Assembly (NCBI GenBank): GCA_950295325.1
Contig: OX485804.1
Span: forward strand, 59,738,533 to 59,802,532
Reading direction: 5' to 3'
Source: Polytrichum commune
Taxonomy: Eukaryota; Streptophyta; Polytrichopsida; Polytrichales; Polytrichaceae
DNA length: 64,000 bases
The translations under genes and the position numbers were made by a program. This document shows positions 48,401 through 63,735 of this stretch, one piece after another (the first letter of the stretch is position 1; each line of letters starts with the position of its first letter). The notes below the pieces were generated by a model. It was not told where the DNA came from. It saw only the letters and a list, made by a program, of their open reading frames with translations, and did not search any database.

Positions 48401-48661
48401 TATTGGAGGTCAATAGGACTAGAGATGAGATTGCACAAGCAAGAACACATACACAAAGACATATGAATAATGTTTAGAATAAGATGGTCATCCTCACCCC
48501 CTTGCTTTGCCTTTTATTGCTCATTGTAAACTTGGTTCTCACAAACAATATGGGTTAACTCTTCTCCCACTACGGACCAACCTTGTAGGCTTATTACAAC
48601 TTCATTCTTTTTAGTATTACAATTCTATGACTACAAACAATCTATTGTTCCACCTTCAACA
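48401..48661 (-). repeat. copia 3' LTR
   Basis: 261 bp, starting TGTTGAAGGTGG on the minus strand and ending CCTCCAATA. It is colinear with 53143-53402 and 61203-61462. Confidence 0.88.
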
Positions 48662-48671
48662 CTCCCACTTT
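48662..48671 (-). other. Polypurine tract of the copia element
   Basis: Minus strand AAAGTGGGAG immediately abutting the TGTTG start of the 3' LTR, as expected for the plus-strand primer. Confidence 0.8.
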
Positions 48672-49362
48672 GAGAGTGGTCAAAGACATGTGATACTATT
48701 GAATTTCTTAGTTTCTCAATCCTATATAGAGAGTTTCTAACATTGCCTATAAGTTTCTCCATATTATGCCTAATTGCTTCAATCCAATTCAAAAGACCTT
48801 CAATTATTGCCACATTGGCGCGTTCATCACCATGTTGAGGCAAAATGTGGACCTTCCACCATTCTCCAAGTGGTCGCCGCTCCTCACCAAATCCTACAAC
48901 AATAATGTCATCGTTTGCGGATCCTTCTTATGGCTCTTCAATTACAACTTCATTACCTCCCACTTGCTCATTATAATCCATGAATTTTCCGCCGCCATAA
49001 TACCAAGGTGATTTGGAAGATTCGTCCACCACCACCAACGTAGGGCCTTTGTTTCTCCCACTCGGACACATCCTCAAATCATTTCTAATGCTCCTATTAT
49101 CTTCCATAAACACAACATCTCTATTTTTATGATTCACATTGTTTCCAAACACATCAGCCTATATGCCTTCATACATTTGCAATATCCAAGATACATGCAT
49201 TTGATTTTTTTCGCATCAAATTAACCCTTCTTCTCGTCCAAAACCATTGCATAAGCAATGCTTCTGAACACACATATGTGTACAACGTAAGGCCTCCTCC
49301 CGCTCCACGTTTCTTCGAATGTAATGAAAAGCAAGGCCCTCGTCGAATAGCAGTTTAGTGTA
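48672..49362 (-). pseudogene. copia integrase C-terminus and pre-RT linker, RT/RNase H deleted
   Basis: Reading from the insertion point, the minus frame gives the end of the integrase core and post-core region (TFEETWSGRRPYVVHICVF, SIAYAMVLDEKK), then NHKNRDVVFMEDNRS, CPSGRNKGPTLVVVDESSKS and RPLGEWWKVHILPQHGDERA. This is the usual copia order up to the start of reverse transcriptase. After NWIEAI the sequence passes straight to the 3' untranslated end and polypurine tract. No RT palm (YVDD) or RNase H is present in the interval. Several frame changes occur. Confidence 0.75.
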
Positions 49363-51112: not shown

Positions 51113-51367
51113 TTACACCTTCAACCCGTTGGACAAAAGATTGCTCACCAAAAGCAAGTTGGTTTGCAACTTGGGATCGTAAAACTCATCCATGATACAA
51201 ATTCTATTCATTTTGCCTCTCGTTTCAACTCTAACAATAATGAACCTCATTCCAATAGTGTCAACCACACTTTCATCACCCAAGCACACATGGCATTGAG
51301 AAATTACTTTGTAGGTGTCGAATGACGCCCCATGCATAGTCATGTGCTTTGTGGCTTCTAAATCCAT
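51113..51367 (-). pseudogene. copia aspartic protease fragment
   Basis: The translation ATKHMTMHGASFDTYKVISQ, then CHVCLGDESVVDTIGM and DPKLQTNLLLVSNLLSNG matches the retropepsin region of copia elements. The canonical active-site DSGA appears as DLEA, so the catalytic aspartate context is degraded. Confidence 0.8.
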
Positions 51368-51489
51368 GATCCATTTGCAAACGCTCCTTGAACGCGCTAT
51401 GTGGTGTGTTGCAAATACACATGGGTCCTAGTTGTTCACATTTTTGGCATTATCCCTCTCCTTGTTATTTTCTTTGTAGCAAAATCATC

Positions 51490-52233
51490 TAGTTTGATTT
51501 AGTTTGCCACAACAAAAGCACATCCTCACGCCTTGCCGCAAAGATATATAACCCGCTTTGATTTGGAGTGATACATTCGTTGTATCTTCACATTGGGGCT
51601 CCTTCTCTTTGCAACTTGAAATCTCGGTCATCAAATGTGTCATCATGTATTCCATCATCAACTCCTTCATCGGCATCATCTCTAAGGCGGTGATCAAGTA
51701 TTCGTACAATGTCAACAAGCTCTTGAGCAAAGTCATGATGATGTCTTCTTCCAAGATAGGTAGCTTAACATACGCAAGTTGATCCGCAAGCGCTTTGACC
51801 TTGTTGATGTGGACAACAAATTGTCACCCTCTTGTATCTTGCACATGAAAAACTTACGGCGAACAAAGATGGTGTTTGACAAATTTTTGGTCTCGTAAAT
51901 GTTACAAAATGTCTTTCACACTTATGTTGGTCATTTGCAACTCTTAATATACGCGAGTTGGTTGTCCATCAAATTCAAGCTTGTGATGGACATAACCTTC
52001 TTGACAAGCCTTTGGTACCCCTTCAATACTTTGGAATTTGTGTTGGAAGGTGGAGCCTTCTTGAATCTGTCGACAATATCCCAAAGGTTCATGGATGCAA
52101 AACCATCTCCATTTCGAACTTCCAAAGGCTGAATCTATTTCCATGGAACTTTTTCCTAGATTCTAGGCCCTTCGCTTTTAGGATATACCATCTTCCGCTT
52201 GAAGAATGGGTTTGTACGCTCGAAAACTTGTAA
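51490..52233 (-). pseudogene. copia gag fragment
   Basis: Broken frames give FASMNLWDIVDRFKKAPPSN, KGYQRLVKKVMSITSLNLMD, FFMCKIQEGDNLL, LLKSLLTLYEYLITALEMMP and, at the end, MCFCCGKLNQTR, a damaged CCHC zinc knuckle lacking the last His and Cys. The order and wording are those of the copia gag-polypeptide (UBN2/RVT-associated) family. Stops and shifts rule out a product. Confidence 0.8.
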
Positions 52234-53130: not shown

Positions 53131-53142
53131 GGGCCCATAACC
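53131..53142 (-). other. Primer-binding site complementary to initiator tRNA-Met anticodon arm
   Basis: The minus strand reads GGTTATGGGCCC directly after the 5' LTR. The plus strand GGGCCCATAACC is identical to the anticodon stem-loop of plant initiator tRNA-Met (anticodon CAU), not its 3' acceptor end. This is the arrangement known from Drosophila copia and yeast Ty5, where a tRNA cut in the anticodon arm primes reverse transcription. Confidence 0.82.
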
Positions 53143-53402
53143 TATTGGAAGTCAATAAGACTAAACATGAGATTGCACAAGCAAGGACACATACACAAAG
53201 GCATATGAATAATGTTTGGAGTAAGATGGTCATTCTCACCCCTTGCCTTGCCCTTTATTGCTCATTTTCAACTTGTTTCTCACAAACAAGATGGGTCAAC
53301 TCTTCTCCCACTATGGACCAACCTCGTAGGCTTATTACAACCTTATTCCTTCTAGTATTACATTTTTATGATTACAAGCAATCTAATGCTCCACCTTCAA
53401 CA
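53143..53402 (-). repeat. copia 5' LTR
   Basis: 260 bp, starting TGTTGAAGGTGG and ending CTTCCAATA on the minus strand. The primer-binding site follows without a gap. Confidence 0.88.
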
Positions 53403-53561: not shown

Positions 53562-55599
53562 CAGTCTAACCTTGATAATATCACACCATCCGTTTCACCA
53601 TAAAGTGTGATATAAACAAGGTGTGACATATTTGATAATGTCACATTTTGAAGATTTGTGCATAATGTGATATTATCAAAAAAAAAAAGGTAGAAAATCA
53701 AAATGAAATTACAATGTAAAAATTTAAAAAAAACAAAAAAAAAAAACAAACACAAGACTTCAATGTTTTTGAATGTAAAATATAATTCAAAATTGTGAAT
53801 AACAACATGAGCACATCACAATGTGTCATTGAGATCAGGTAAAGACCTCTCACTAGAGACAAAGAAGCTTCTAATGTCACATTGTTTTAGTGATGTTAAA
53901 TGTCCAACACCAATTCTAATGAGTTTGTCATGGATGTTTTCCATTCCTAACAACTCATGAGTGTTGAAAATCTGAGAACCTTGGCTAGCCATAAAATTCA
54001 AAACATCTTTAGCATATTTTTGTGCATTGCTTAGCTTCACTACTTTAGACTCATCATCATTGCTATTAACAATCAATGGGTCTTCTTCCATGGAATCAAG
54101 TACATGTTCGCCATCTTGCACTAATTGCACAAGCTCCTCAGTAGAATATTCCACCTCAAAATCATCTTCACCTTCCATGTTTATGTACTCTAAAGGACTA
54201 AGCTTTTCTATAGGCTTGCCTTCAACATCCAAACCCAAATTCAATGCGGCGATGAGATTGCCCAATTCCAAAGCTGCTTCCTCCATTTTGGACTTCATAC
54301 GTTCATCAGAATTGTTGATATCTGCATTCCACGCTGCAGGCAATATGGTAGACTTTCTCCAACAATTTCTAATGGTTTGATCATCTAATTCATGCCATGC
54401 CGCCACACACCATAGCATTGCTTGAAATAGATCAACATTCAGTTTCCCCAAATCTTCATTTGAGTTATCAATTTGTTGCAAAGTCCAGGCAACAAGCTTG
54501 CGTTTATAGCACATTTTGAATGCTGCAATCACTCCTTGATCCAAAGGCTGAACAACTGAAGTCACATTTGGTGGAAGAAACAATATAGTGATATGGGAGA
54601 GTACAAAAGCATTAAATCCATCTATAACTTTTTTGACCTCACCATGAATATCATGGCTTCCTGCATTATCCATAATAATGCAAATTTTTCTATCTTGCAA
54701 TGCCATTCTTTGGTTCTCACTCTTCACCCAATGTGTAAAAGCATCACCATTCATCCAGGCTGAATTGTTAGAATAATAGTGTACTATACTATTTGGATCA
54801 AACTTCCGAGGAAAGCATCTGGGACGTGTTGATTTGTGAATGAAAACAAGCTTCAATCGCTCCTTCCCTGAGATATTAGTGCAAAGCCCCAATGTCACAC
54901 GGTCCTTCTTCTTTTTATTTCCTTTTGCCTTCCCAATATTCAAAGTCTTGCAAGGAGAGGCTTTATAATACAAACCTGTCTCATCAAAATTGAAGATGTC
55001 TTCAGGATCTTACTAGATTCTCCTATGCGACTATTGACTATAGAAACAGTGAAGACCGTGCCACATATCTTGAGATTTCTACATTGCAAACCAATTGAAC
55101 TAATTTAGCTTAAGTCGACACTACTCTGTACCAACTCAGCTAAACCGTAGAACTTAACATCCTAAATTACTTCACACAAGCTGAAACCCTCAAAGACACA
55201 TAGGTGAACACATGTGACGGAAGGTGGGGTGCATAGAGGCCAAGAAGTCTTGGCAGCGCCGTCAAAGACAACACCTTTGAGTGCCGTGTATAGACAGCAC
55301 CGTTCAGGGTTGGTGCACAGAGGCGGCTCATGACCCTTTGAATAACATTGCATTTATCACAGGGGTGGCTCATGACCCTTTTGGCTACTACAATATGTCC
55401 ATCCAACCATCACATACAATCCATCCATATTTGATATTATCACATTTACACTACGGATTTTGGAAAAAAATAGTGACATTAACAAGGGTGATAGGGATAA
55501 TAACGAGGGAGTTTTACACTAAGAAAATCGGATTCAAACTTTTAGGTGACAGTATCAAGGTGTCCCATTAACAAGGGTGACATTATCAAGGTTAGACTG
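53562..55599 (-). mobile_element. pogo/Tigger-type (Tc1/mariner superfamily) transposon
   Basis: The ends CAGTCTAACCTTGATAAT...  and the inverse match over about 23 of 24 bp and are flanked by TA (53560-53561 and 55600-55601). Inside each end, further TGTCACA/TTATCAA motifs recur as subterminal repeats. CAGT tips, TA target and a DDE_1/Jerky-like transposase on the minus strand identify a pogo/Tigger element. At 2,038 bp it is shorter than complete relatives because the 5' coding part is missing: 55010-55560 is non-coding and contains a short direct repeat (GGCTCATGACCCTTT twice). Confidence 0.9.
53816..55009 (-). pseudogene. Tigger/pogo transposase, 5'-truncated, DDD catalytic domain intact
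   Basis: A frame of 397 codons, open from just after two stops at 55010-55015 to a stop at 53816. No ATG lies near its beginning. The catalytic triad is complete: D in NFDETGLYYKA (about residue 9), D in IIMDNAGSHD, D in VVQPLDQGVIAAF. Downstream follow the usual AWHELDDQTIRNCWRKS segment and an acidic C-terminal tail. The N-terminal CENP-B/psq helix-turn-helix DNA-binding domains of this family are absent from the upstream DNA. The long uninterrupted frame in an otherwise decayed neighbourhood suggests a recent insertion or loss. Confidence 0.85.
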
Positions 55600-61202: not shown

Positions 61203-61462
61203 TACTAGAACTAAATAGGACTCGAATCAGAATGCACGCGCATATCACACATACACAAAGGCATATGAACAATGCTTGGAATGAGATGGTCATCCTTACC
61301 CCTTGCCTTGCCCTTTATTGCTCATTCTCAACTCGATTCTCAAAAACAATATGGGGAAATTCTTCTCCCATTCCGGACCAGCCATGTATGCTTATTACAA
61401 CCTTATTCCTTCTGGTATTACATTTTTATGACTACGAACAATCTAATGCTCCACCTCCAACA
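61203..61462 (-). mobile_element. Solo LTR of the copia family
   Basis: Matches the two LTRs at 48401 and 53143 end to end (CACATACACAAAGGCATATGAA, GGTCATCCTTACCCC, TTATTGCTCATT, GCTTATTACAACCTTATTCC, TCTAATGCTCCACC). The flanks CGACC (61198-61202) and AGACC (61463-61467) agree at 4 of 5 positions, consistent with an LTR-LTR recombination product. Confidence 0.82.
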
Positions 61463-61794: not shown

Positions 61795-62837
61795 TAAATG
61801 CACGCTTTACGATTCTCACATGTTCGTCAAGAGCACATGAAAGTTACATGTGTTTTTATCACGTGTCGTCCATGCTAAACTACACTCTAAACTCCGTAGT
61901 ATCACACCCGTGGCAACCAAAGTGCATGTGATATTACGGAGTTTCGTAGTGTTGACATGGATGCGTGGTATTGTAGAAGTAGTGTAGTATGTGACATTAT
62001 GGAATAACATAAAGGAGATTTGACGACAATTTGAATTCATTCTCTCGTCATCTAGTACGCTAGTGTGGTCCACTCCACTTGGCCTTCCTGGGCGATGTGG
62101 CAGGTGCATGCACCAGCATTCAACAAGTGGCATTAGAAGAAGAATAAAAATAAGACGGTGACACTCCACATGTTGATACATGGCGCAATGCGAGGACGTG
62201 GGTTGACTTCTTTGGTGGATTGCATTGATGACAAATTCTGTGATATAAGGGAAAGAAATGTGACGATAAGGAGTGAGATTAGAATTACGAACATCCGTTC
62301 TCTAGGGTTTCATGATATTAGAGAGTGTGTGACATTATGAGGGTTGATATTATGAAGTTTAGGGTGTACATGTCACCTATGTTAAATCGTAAGTTCCATG
62401 TCTCAAACCATAGGTGTCTTATGCTAAACTATAGGCGTCCTACGTTTGACTATAATTGTTGTCCTATGTTTTACCATGTCACACCTTTCAAACTCAACAT
62501 GGATGTGTTTCATCCTCCTAGTCACAGTTGCATTCGTCCATTATGGAATACAATGAGTGCACGCTTTCCAAGTTCACATGTTTGTCAACAACATATGAAA
62601 GTTACATGTGCTTTACCATAGGTCATCTATGTTAAATTGTAGGCTCCTTGTGGCAACCCATAGGTGTCTTATGCTAAACTATAGGTGTCCGCTAAACTAT
62701 AGGTGTCCTATGTTTAACTATAATTGTCGTCCTATGCTTCATCACGTGACACCTTTCAAACTCAACATGGATATGTTTTGTTCTACTAGTCCCACTTGCT
62801 TTTATCCATTACAAAATACGATAAGTGCACGCTTTGC
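61795..62837 (+). repeat. Degenerate tandem duplication, about 250-bp unit
   Basis: Units share GTGCACGCTTT, CACATGTTTGTCAA, CATATGAAAGTTACATGTG, CATAGGTGTCTTATGCTAAAC, CTATAATTGTYGTCCTATG and CACCTTTCAAACTCAACATGG. Two full units are about 62355-62580 and 62585-62837, and a partial one is at 61795-61890. The second unit has an extra CTAAACTATAGGTGTCC internal repeat. Frames in it (62325-62970) simply follow the repeat. Confidence 0.7.
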
Positions 62838-62873
62838 AAGAAAAAAGGAAAAAAGGAAAAAAGGAAAAAAAAG
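62838..62873. repeat. (GGAAAAAA)n-type purine microsatellite
   Basis: Four AAAAAGG-type units after the tandem duplication. Confidence 0.85.
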
Positions 62874-63334: not shown

Positions 63335-63735
63335 CAACTCACGTTTTGGGCCCGATCGGCCAACTTCTAGAGGTTGTTTCCACAAAAATAAGCTTGCATA
63401 TGACATCTCTAACCTTCTACCAACCCATGGTAGAGTTTTCAAGTCATTTTGAAGAGTTACATATCTATGACCAGCTAACGTTTTTTGGTCAAATCGGCCA
63501 ACTTCCAAAGGTGGTTTTTGCAAGCCAAGTCCAAATGTGCCCTCTCTTACCTTCTACCAACCTATGATAGAGTTTTTGCCCTAAACCCTAACCACTTTCA
63601 TGTTGCCAATCAGCTAGCATTTTTGGTTAATTCAACCAACTTCCGGGAATGGTTTTCGCAAACTAAGTCTGGATCTAACATCTCTAACATTCTACCAACC
63701 TATGGTACAATTTTCGGGTCATTCTGACCACTTGC
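63335..63735 (+). repeat. Three tandem units of about 135 bp
   Basis: Units start near 63343, 63476 and 63613 and share (AGCTAR)CGTTTTTTGGTC, AATCGGCCAACTTC, GGTTTTYGCAA, CTCTAACCTTCTACCAACC and ATGGTAGAGTTTTC. The frames seen here repeat the same peptide in each unit, but no function is recognised. Confidence 0.7.

What the first reader, a model, noticed from the sequence alone, without database searches (positions are those of the whole stretch)
53131..53402. Plant copia element with a half-tRNA (initiator Met anticodon-arm) primer-binding site
The 12 bases after the 5' LTR equal the complement of the anticodon arm of initiator tRNA-Met. Most described plant copia elements pair with the tRNA 3' end (TGGTATCAGAGC type). 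Half-tRNA priming is established for Drosophila copia and yeast Ty5, so a plant family using it, with LTRs starting TGTTG and the same GGTTATGGGCCC as copia, is worth defining.
Basis: partly seen in the sequence, partly recalled or inferred. Interest (0 to 1): 0.75.

Follow-up and report, generated by a model that had tools for sequence, protein, structure and literature searches.

The report
Half-tRNA-primed plant copia retrotransposon

Summary
Confirmed, but not new in kind. On the minus strand a decayed Ty1/copia element (5' LTR 53402-53143, 3' LTR 48661-48401) carries GGTTATGGGCCC (53142-53131) directly against the LTR end, complementary to nucleotides 28-39 of the genome's initiator tRNA-Met. 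The genome holds 247 exact LTR-end/PBS junctions (reversed control 0), behind at least three LTR groups; the CAATA LTR end is followed by a standard PBS at one place only. On a reverse-transcriptase tree, PBS type changes once among 12 elements whose PBS was read. The novelty premise fails: Neumann et al. 2019 (PMC6317226) report half-tRNA-Met PBSs in plant Osser, Bryco and part of Gymco-II. The more interesting part lies outside the window: family B (about 192-bp LTRs, TATTG..CAATA, long open frames, 6 of 13 LTR pairs identical) forms one dense cluster on each of seven chromosomes, as described for the Bryco element RLC5 in mosses, where such clusters are taken as centromeres. Best filing: new families of half-tRNA-primed plant copia; Bryco in a moss is the likeliest lineage, but its phylogeny could not be tested and target duplications are 5 bp, not the 4 bp reported as commonest in Bryco. 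The cut tRNA itself was not shown.

The parts
53143..53402 (-). 5' LTR, 260 bp, TGTTG...CAATA (TG..TA ends)
   Evidence: many genome alignments of the LTR+PBS query end at query position 260, the LTR end; solo-like copies L015 and L022 have perfect 5-bp target duplications at these ends
53131..53142 (-). primer-binding site GGTTATGGGCCC, complementary to nt 28-39 of initiator tRNA-Met (13 nt with the following A, 53130)
51485..51823 (-). remnant of gag (copia type)
   Evidence: Pfam PF14223 Retrotran_gag_2, 27.1 bits, cut-off 27, a marginal hit
51113..51427 (-). remnant of pol, PF22936 Pol_BBD region
   Evidence: 47.5 bits, cut-off 27
48662..48672 (-). polypurine tract CAAAGTGGGAG
   Evidence: the same tract or a one-base variant precedes 3' LTRs of groups A and B
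48401..48661 (-). 3' LTR, 261 bp, 232 of 261 aligned positions identical to the 5' LTR; flanks give no target duplication (TTGTA / AGTCT)
61203..61462 (-). solo LTR of the same family (220 of 261 aligned positions identical), flanks GGTCT / GGTCG

Best explanation
The feature is the start of a dead Ty1/copia retrotransposon of a large plant clade that primes reverse transcription with the 5' half of initiator tRNA-Met. Shown: the PBS abuts the LTR, is complementary to tRNA nt 28-39, recurs behind unlike LTRs, and keeps to one side of the RT tree. Inferred: the initiator tRNA is cleaved in the anticodon stem after nt 39 (position 40 in standard numbering), the 3'-OH of the fragment pairs with the PBS, and minus-strand DNA starts at the last base of the LTR, so the cDNA end is the LTR end itself and the integrase would need no trimming there. 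The clade most likely is Bryco; its family B builds one cluster per chromosome, probably the centromere.
For: 247 exact LTR-end/PBS junctions, control 0. 12 places with the matching tRNA arm, 4 of 4 tested are tRNA-Met. Three LTR groups share the PBS. RT tree: A+B rows form one group (92/82); PBS type changes once among 12 rows with a PBS read. On C1 0-37.2 Mb, of 22 listed RVT_2 hits 13 have a half PBS 2.3-6.2 kb upstream, 4 a standard one, 5 neither, 0 both. CAATA followed within 5 bp by a standard PBS: 1 place. Family B: 10 of 13 LTR pairs with a 5-bp target duplication, 6 of 13 identical. Gag, integrase and RT domains. One cluster on each of 7 chromosomes. Literature passages.
Against: No cDNA, small-RNA or cleaved-tRNA data were available. 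No Bryco reference sequence could be compared. PMC6911290 (passage) found 4-bp target duplications most common in Bryco; here they are 5 bp. The host being a moss is inferred; the rRNA linkage test did not decide. The window copy has no detectable RT and no target duplication. Group A is represented in the tree by two rows, L105 and L108, and only L105 had its PBS read. Joining family C with A+B has support 42/0, i.e. not shown. 5 of 22 RT hits on C1 had neither PBS.
Confidence: 0.85

Rival explanations
1. The element primes itself from its own transcript, as predicted for TAR and Tcn1 elements, and the tRNA match is incidental.
For: Self-priming is predicted for some plant copia (PMC6317226 passages).
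Against: The longest stretch of the window LTR complementary to the 30 bases after it is 5 nt, below the mean of 200 shuffled LTRs, 5.85. The tRNA match recurs behind three LTR groups.
Confidence: 0.03
2. The primer is a whole tRNA and the standard PBS lies a little further in; GGTTATGGGCCC is just conserved leader.
For: Standard PBSs are common in this genome: TGGTATCAGAGC 1127 times, control 21.
Against: Best match to the standard PBS 0-5 bases after the LTR is 6-8 mismatches of 12 in each of the 20 A-family loci. One CAATA + standard PBS place in the genome.
Confidence: 0.03
3. The half-tRNA PBS is real but the clade is not Bryco: it is another lineage (Osser, Gymco-II or an unnamed one).
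For: Half-tRNA-Met PBSs also occur in Osser and Gymco-II; target duplications here are 5 bp, not the 4 bp reported as most common in Bryco; family C stands on a long branch.
Against: RLC5 of Physcomitrium, described as Bryco, clusters once per chromosome, as family B does here.
Confidence: 0.25

Closest known systems
Bryco lineage, RLC5 of Physcomitrium patens (PMC6317226, PMC7466625, PMC12885004; passages read)
   Same: Copia; half-tRNA-Met PBS reported for Bryco; one cluster per chromosome taken as centromere
   Different: 5-bp target duplications here against 4 bp as commonest in Bryco (PMC6911290 passage); LTRs ending in TA here; sequence relation untested
RLC5 clusters in Sphagnum (PMC9946827, passages)
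   Same: each chromosome has at least one dense copia cluster, there generally with reduced recombination
   Different: PBS of the Sphagnum element is not stated in the passages read; no recombination data here
Drosophila copia and yeast Ty5 (Hemivirus)
   Same: primer is a half initiator tRNA-Met; PMC1181622 (passages) gives the start as the 3'-OH of nucleotide 40, the register found here
   Different: animal and fungal hosts; their PBS letters were not compared here, the copia match is recalled
Osser of Volvox (PMC6317226, PMC1181622; passages)
   Same: green-lineage copia listed among half-tRNA-primed elements
   Different: alga (host recalled); relation to families A, B, C untested

Membership tests
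Ty1/copia LTR retrotransposon | copia-type gag and pol domains, LTRs, PPT | tested here: met
   Pfam hits gag, CCHC knuckle, Pol_BBD, gag_pre-integrs, rve, SH3, RVT_2 in relatives; LTRs and PPT. In the window copy only gag (marginal) and Pol_BBD are recognisable
Half-tRNA-primed copia (Hemivirus-like) | PBS complementary to the anticodon arm of initiator tRNA-Met, adjacent to the 5' LTR | tested here: met
Half-tRNA-primed copia (Hemivirus-like) | cDNA starts on a cleaved tRNA half | not testable with these tools
   needs cDNA or small RNA
Bryco | half-tRNA-Met PBS | tested here: met
   feature taken
Bryco | RT/RH/INT phylogeny with REXdb Bryco (the defining criterion) | not testable with these tools
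   no reference sequences held
Bryco | moss host | tested here: inconclusive
   TTTAGGG telomere, seven large contigs; rRNA linkage undecided
Bryco | reported tendency, not a definition: 4-bp target duplications most common (PMC6911290) | tested here: not met
   family B: 5 bp in 10 of 13 pairs, none found in 3 of 13. For this reason, and for want of a phylogeny, Bryco is named as likeliest and not as a filing
RLC5-type centromeric copia | one dense cluster per chromosome | tested here: met
   7 of 7 large contigs, 68 of 150 listed RVT_2 hits; per chromosome 0 of 2000 random trials reach the observed count
RLC5-type centromeric copia | centromere function (CENH3) | not testable with these tools
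   no chromatin data

The most novel reading that the evidence does not exclude
In this plant the centromere-like cluster of each of the seven large chromosomes is built by a still-young copia family whose copying depends on cleaved initiator tRNA-Met, and the half-primed families as a group have also moved to TA-type LTR ends (TG..TA, TA..TA, TA..CA) with the PBS flush against the LTR. Primer choice, LTR-end recognition by integrase and centromere targeting would then have travelled together.
Probability: 0.4. Interest if true: 0.5.

Novelty: new member of a known kind. Interest (0 to 1): 0.3.

Why it matters
It gives a within-genome contrast: two priming modes on opposite sides of one RT tree, with near-identical copies on the half-tRNA side. 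That makes half-tRNA priming in a plant testable, and links it to elements that probably form centromeres. It does not open a new class.

Tried and rejected
Self-priming: rejected by the complementarity check. Standard PBS further in: rejected. PBS as chance: rejected. Host identity by 5S/45S rRNA linkage: undecided; the 5S hits are scattered, only 47 of 15,430 candidates were scored, and the fetched 45S stretch on C22 holds only the first third or so of the large rRNA. Paper searches on a Polytrichum genome and on TGTA/TACA LTR ends returned nothing. tblastn of RTs found no RT in the window. PBS search upstream of RTs L085 and L089 found neither type, apart from a two-mismatch half-PBS-like string far inside L116. 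In the tree rows L040 and L074 were labelled 'half' although the PBS seen near them belongs to another element; they were dropped and the count repeated on 12 rows. The first version of the C1 table used 15 of the 100 standard-PBS places listed; repeated with all 100 it gave the same counts. The first random control gave a maximum of 5 over all chromosomes, equal to the count on C6; a control per chromosome was therefore run.

No paper was found that joins half-tRNA priming with centromere-like clusters, or that describes these families; searches: best-ranked listings only, in the held open-access library only. PMC5371799 was seen as a listing only.

Full report
Observation. The window's minus strand carries an LTR of 260 bp (53402 down to 53143; TGTTG...CAATA) followed without a gap by GGTTATGGGCCC (53142-53131). 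A second LTR lies at 48661-48401, preceded by the purine tract CAAAGTGGGAG, so this is one element of about 5 kb read leftwards. The two LTRs agree at 232 of 261 aligned positions and the flanks give no target duplication, so the copy is old. A marginal gag remnant and the Pol_BBD part of pol are recognisable; no RT was found in it. A solo LTR of the family lies at 61462-61203.

Is it more than chance? Within the window the 12-mer alone is weak evidence: 8 matches with up to two mismatches against 3.2 expected, though only one is exact. In the whole genome (407.8 Mb) the LTR end plus PBS, CAAYAGGTTATGGGCCC, is found 247 times, reversed control 0. A pattern for the tRNA arm finds 12 places; the 4 of them cut out as loci are all called tRNA-Met (cat) by ARAGORN. 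In L029, GGGCCCATAACC is nucleotides 28-39. PMC1181622 (passages) states that half-tRNA elements start from the 3'-OH of nucleotide 40. The tRNA lacks a base at standard position 17 (recalled numbering), so linear nt 39 is standard 40: the same register. The exact match to the tRNA is 13 nt in the window copy; among 52 fetched exact PBSs (some loci fetched twice) it is 14 nt in 43, 12-13 in 6, 16 in 2 and 18 in 1.

Family-wide test. The LTR search scored 40 of 964 candidates. I fetched 20 of those 40, leaving out the window's own. Directly after the LTR, 12 of 20 show the PBS (5 exact, 7 with one mismatch) and 8 of 20 unrelated flank; none comes closer than 6 mismatches to the standard PBS. 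The choice leans towards copies whose match ran into the PBS. Of the five solo-like copies, two (L015, L022) have perfect 5-bp duplications and three none, which fixes the LTR ends as TG..TA.

Other families with the same PBS. Grouping 44 pre-PBS stretches (39 distinct loci of the 247, not a random sample) gave three LTR groups of 27, 15 and 2 stretches. A holds the window's relatives and is broad (pairwise identity 70-100%). B has LTRs of 190-193 bp with TATTG...CAATA ends; its PPT-LTR pattern gives 114 matches, at least one place counted twice, reversed control 0. C has a 340-bp LTR, TATTAG...CAACA, and the target duplication ACTAC; an LTR search finds that element and two part-LTR matches at one place on C4. 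In 13 family-B LTR pairs, chosen because both ends could be paired and so leaning to intact copies, 10 have a 5-bp duplication and 3 none; 6 pairs are identical, the lowest is 95.3%. By my count 48 of the 150 listed RVT_2 hits lie in open frames of 1363, 1364 or 1373 codons.

Link to the RT. Of 39 RT rows (34 picked from the 150 listed RVT_2 hits, 5 from fetched elements), A and B form one group of 17 (92/82, not starred; A is only L105 and L108) and 15 others a group (100/100) in which four had a standard PBS read or listed upstream. L105 has an exact half PBS; L084, L086 and L093 have standard PBSs; L085 and L089 showed neither. Among 12 rows with a PBS, type changes once on the tree. C sits on a very long branch; its union with A+B is in the best tree but with support 42/0, so it is undecided. 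On C1 0-37.2 Mb, 22 listed RT hits have upstream PBSs as follows: 13 half, 4 standard, 5 neither, 0 both. CAATA followed within five bases by the standard PBS is found once in the genome, although the standard PBS string itself is found 1127 times, control 21.

Clusters. The 150 listed RVT_2 hits show one dense 200-kb region on each of C1-C7 (12, 9, 7, 11, 10, 5 and 14 hits; 68 of 150), with at most 2 in any 200 kb elsewhere once the cluster and about 0.5 Mb on either side are set aside. In 2000 random placements per chromosome none reached the observed count; the weakest is C6, 5 of 13 against a random maximum of 3. The list holds the best-scoring hits only (150 of 1204 candidates), so it is weighted to young family-B copies; the B PPT-LTR pattern falls in the same regions on C1-C6 and begins to on C7, where its list is cut. 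This is the pattern described for RLC5 in Physcomitrium (PMC7466625 passages) and Sphagnum (PMC9946827 passages), read there as centromeres; PMC12885004 (passages) calls RLC5 a Bryco element.

What is known. Neumann et al. 2019 (PMC6317226; abstract and passages) state that half-tRNA-Met PBSs were found in plant Osser, Bryco and part of Gymco-II elements. What remains is new families in what is probably a moss, a clear PBS/RT association within one genome, and the LTR ends. Against Bryco: PMC6911290 (passages) reports 4-bp duplications as most common there; here they are 5 bp. Host as moss is inference from the plant telomere repeat, seven large contigs and the clusters; rRNA linkage did not decide.

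Mechanism. Shown: PBS sequence, position, conservation, tRNA complementarity. Inferred: tRNA cleavage after nt 39, priming, and blunt cDNA ends because no base lies between PBS and LTR. Not shown: any cDNA.

Noticed in passing
C1:33.41-33.59, C2:47.27-47.32, C3:33.16-33.20, C4:35.45-35.52, C5:46.55-46.61, C6:25.46-25.49, C7:13.58-13.68 Mb of G000: One dense cluster of young copia elements, mostly family B, per large chromosome, centromere-like.
   Followed up: partly
L042:37-4524 (C2:5352636 onwards); also C4:18951628-18957429: Low-copy family C: half-tRNA PBS with an 18-nt match, LTR TA..CA, RT on a very long branch; may be a second half-primed lineage.
   Followed up: partly
families A, B, C: LTR ends are TG..TA, TA..TA and TA..CA, none the usual TG..CA, in the half-tRNA-primed families whose ends were fixed by target duplications.
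   Followed up: partly
window 53562-55599: DNA transposon next to the element: DDE_1 endonuclease frame at 53816-55009 minus (124 bits), inverted ends CAGTCTAACCTTGATAAT and TA flanks read; looks like a pogo/Tigger-type element (name recalled).
   Followed up: partly
L035: A-group copy in which only the last part of RT (residues 200-245 of the query) matches, as if RT were mostly deleted.
   Followed up: no
window 62372-62840 and 63345-63714: Short diverged direct repeats, not studied.
   Followed up: no
L113, L116: Copia RT lineages L085/L092 and L089 for which neither an exact half nor an exact standard tRNA-Met PBS was found in about 4.2 kb upstream.
   Followed up: no
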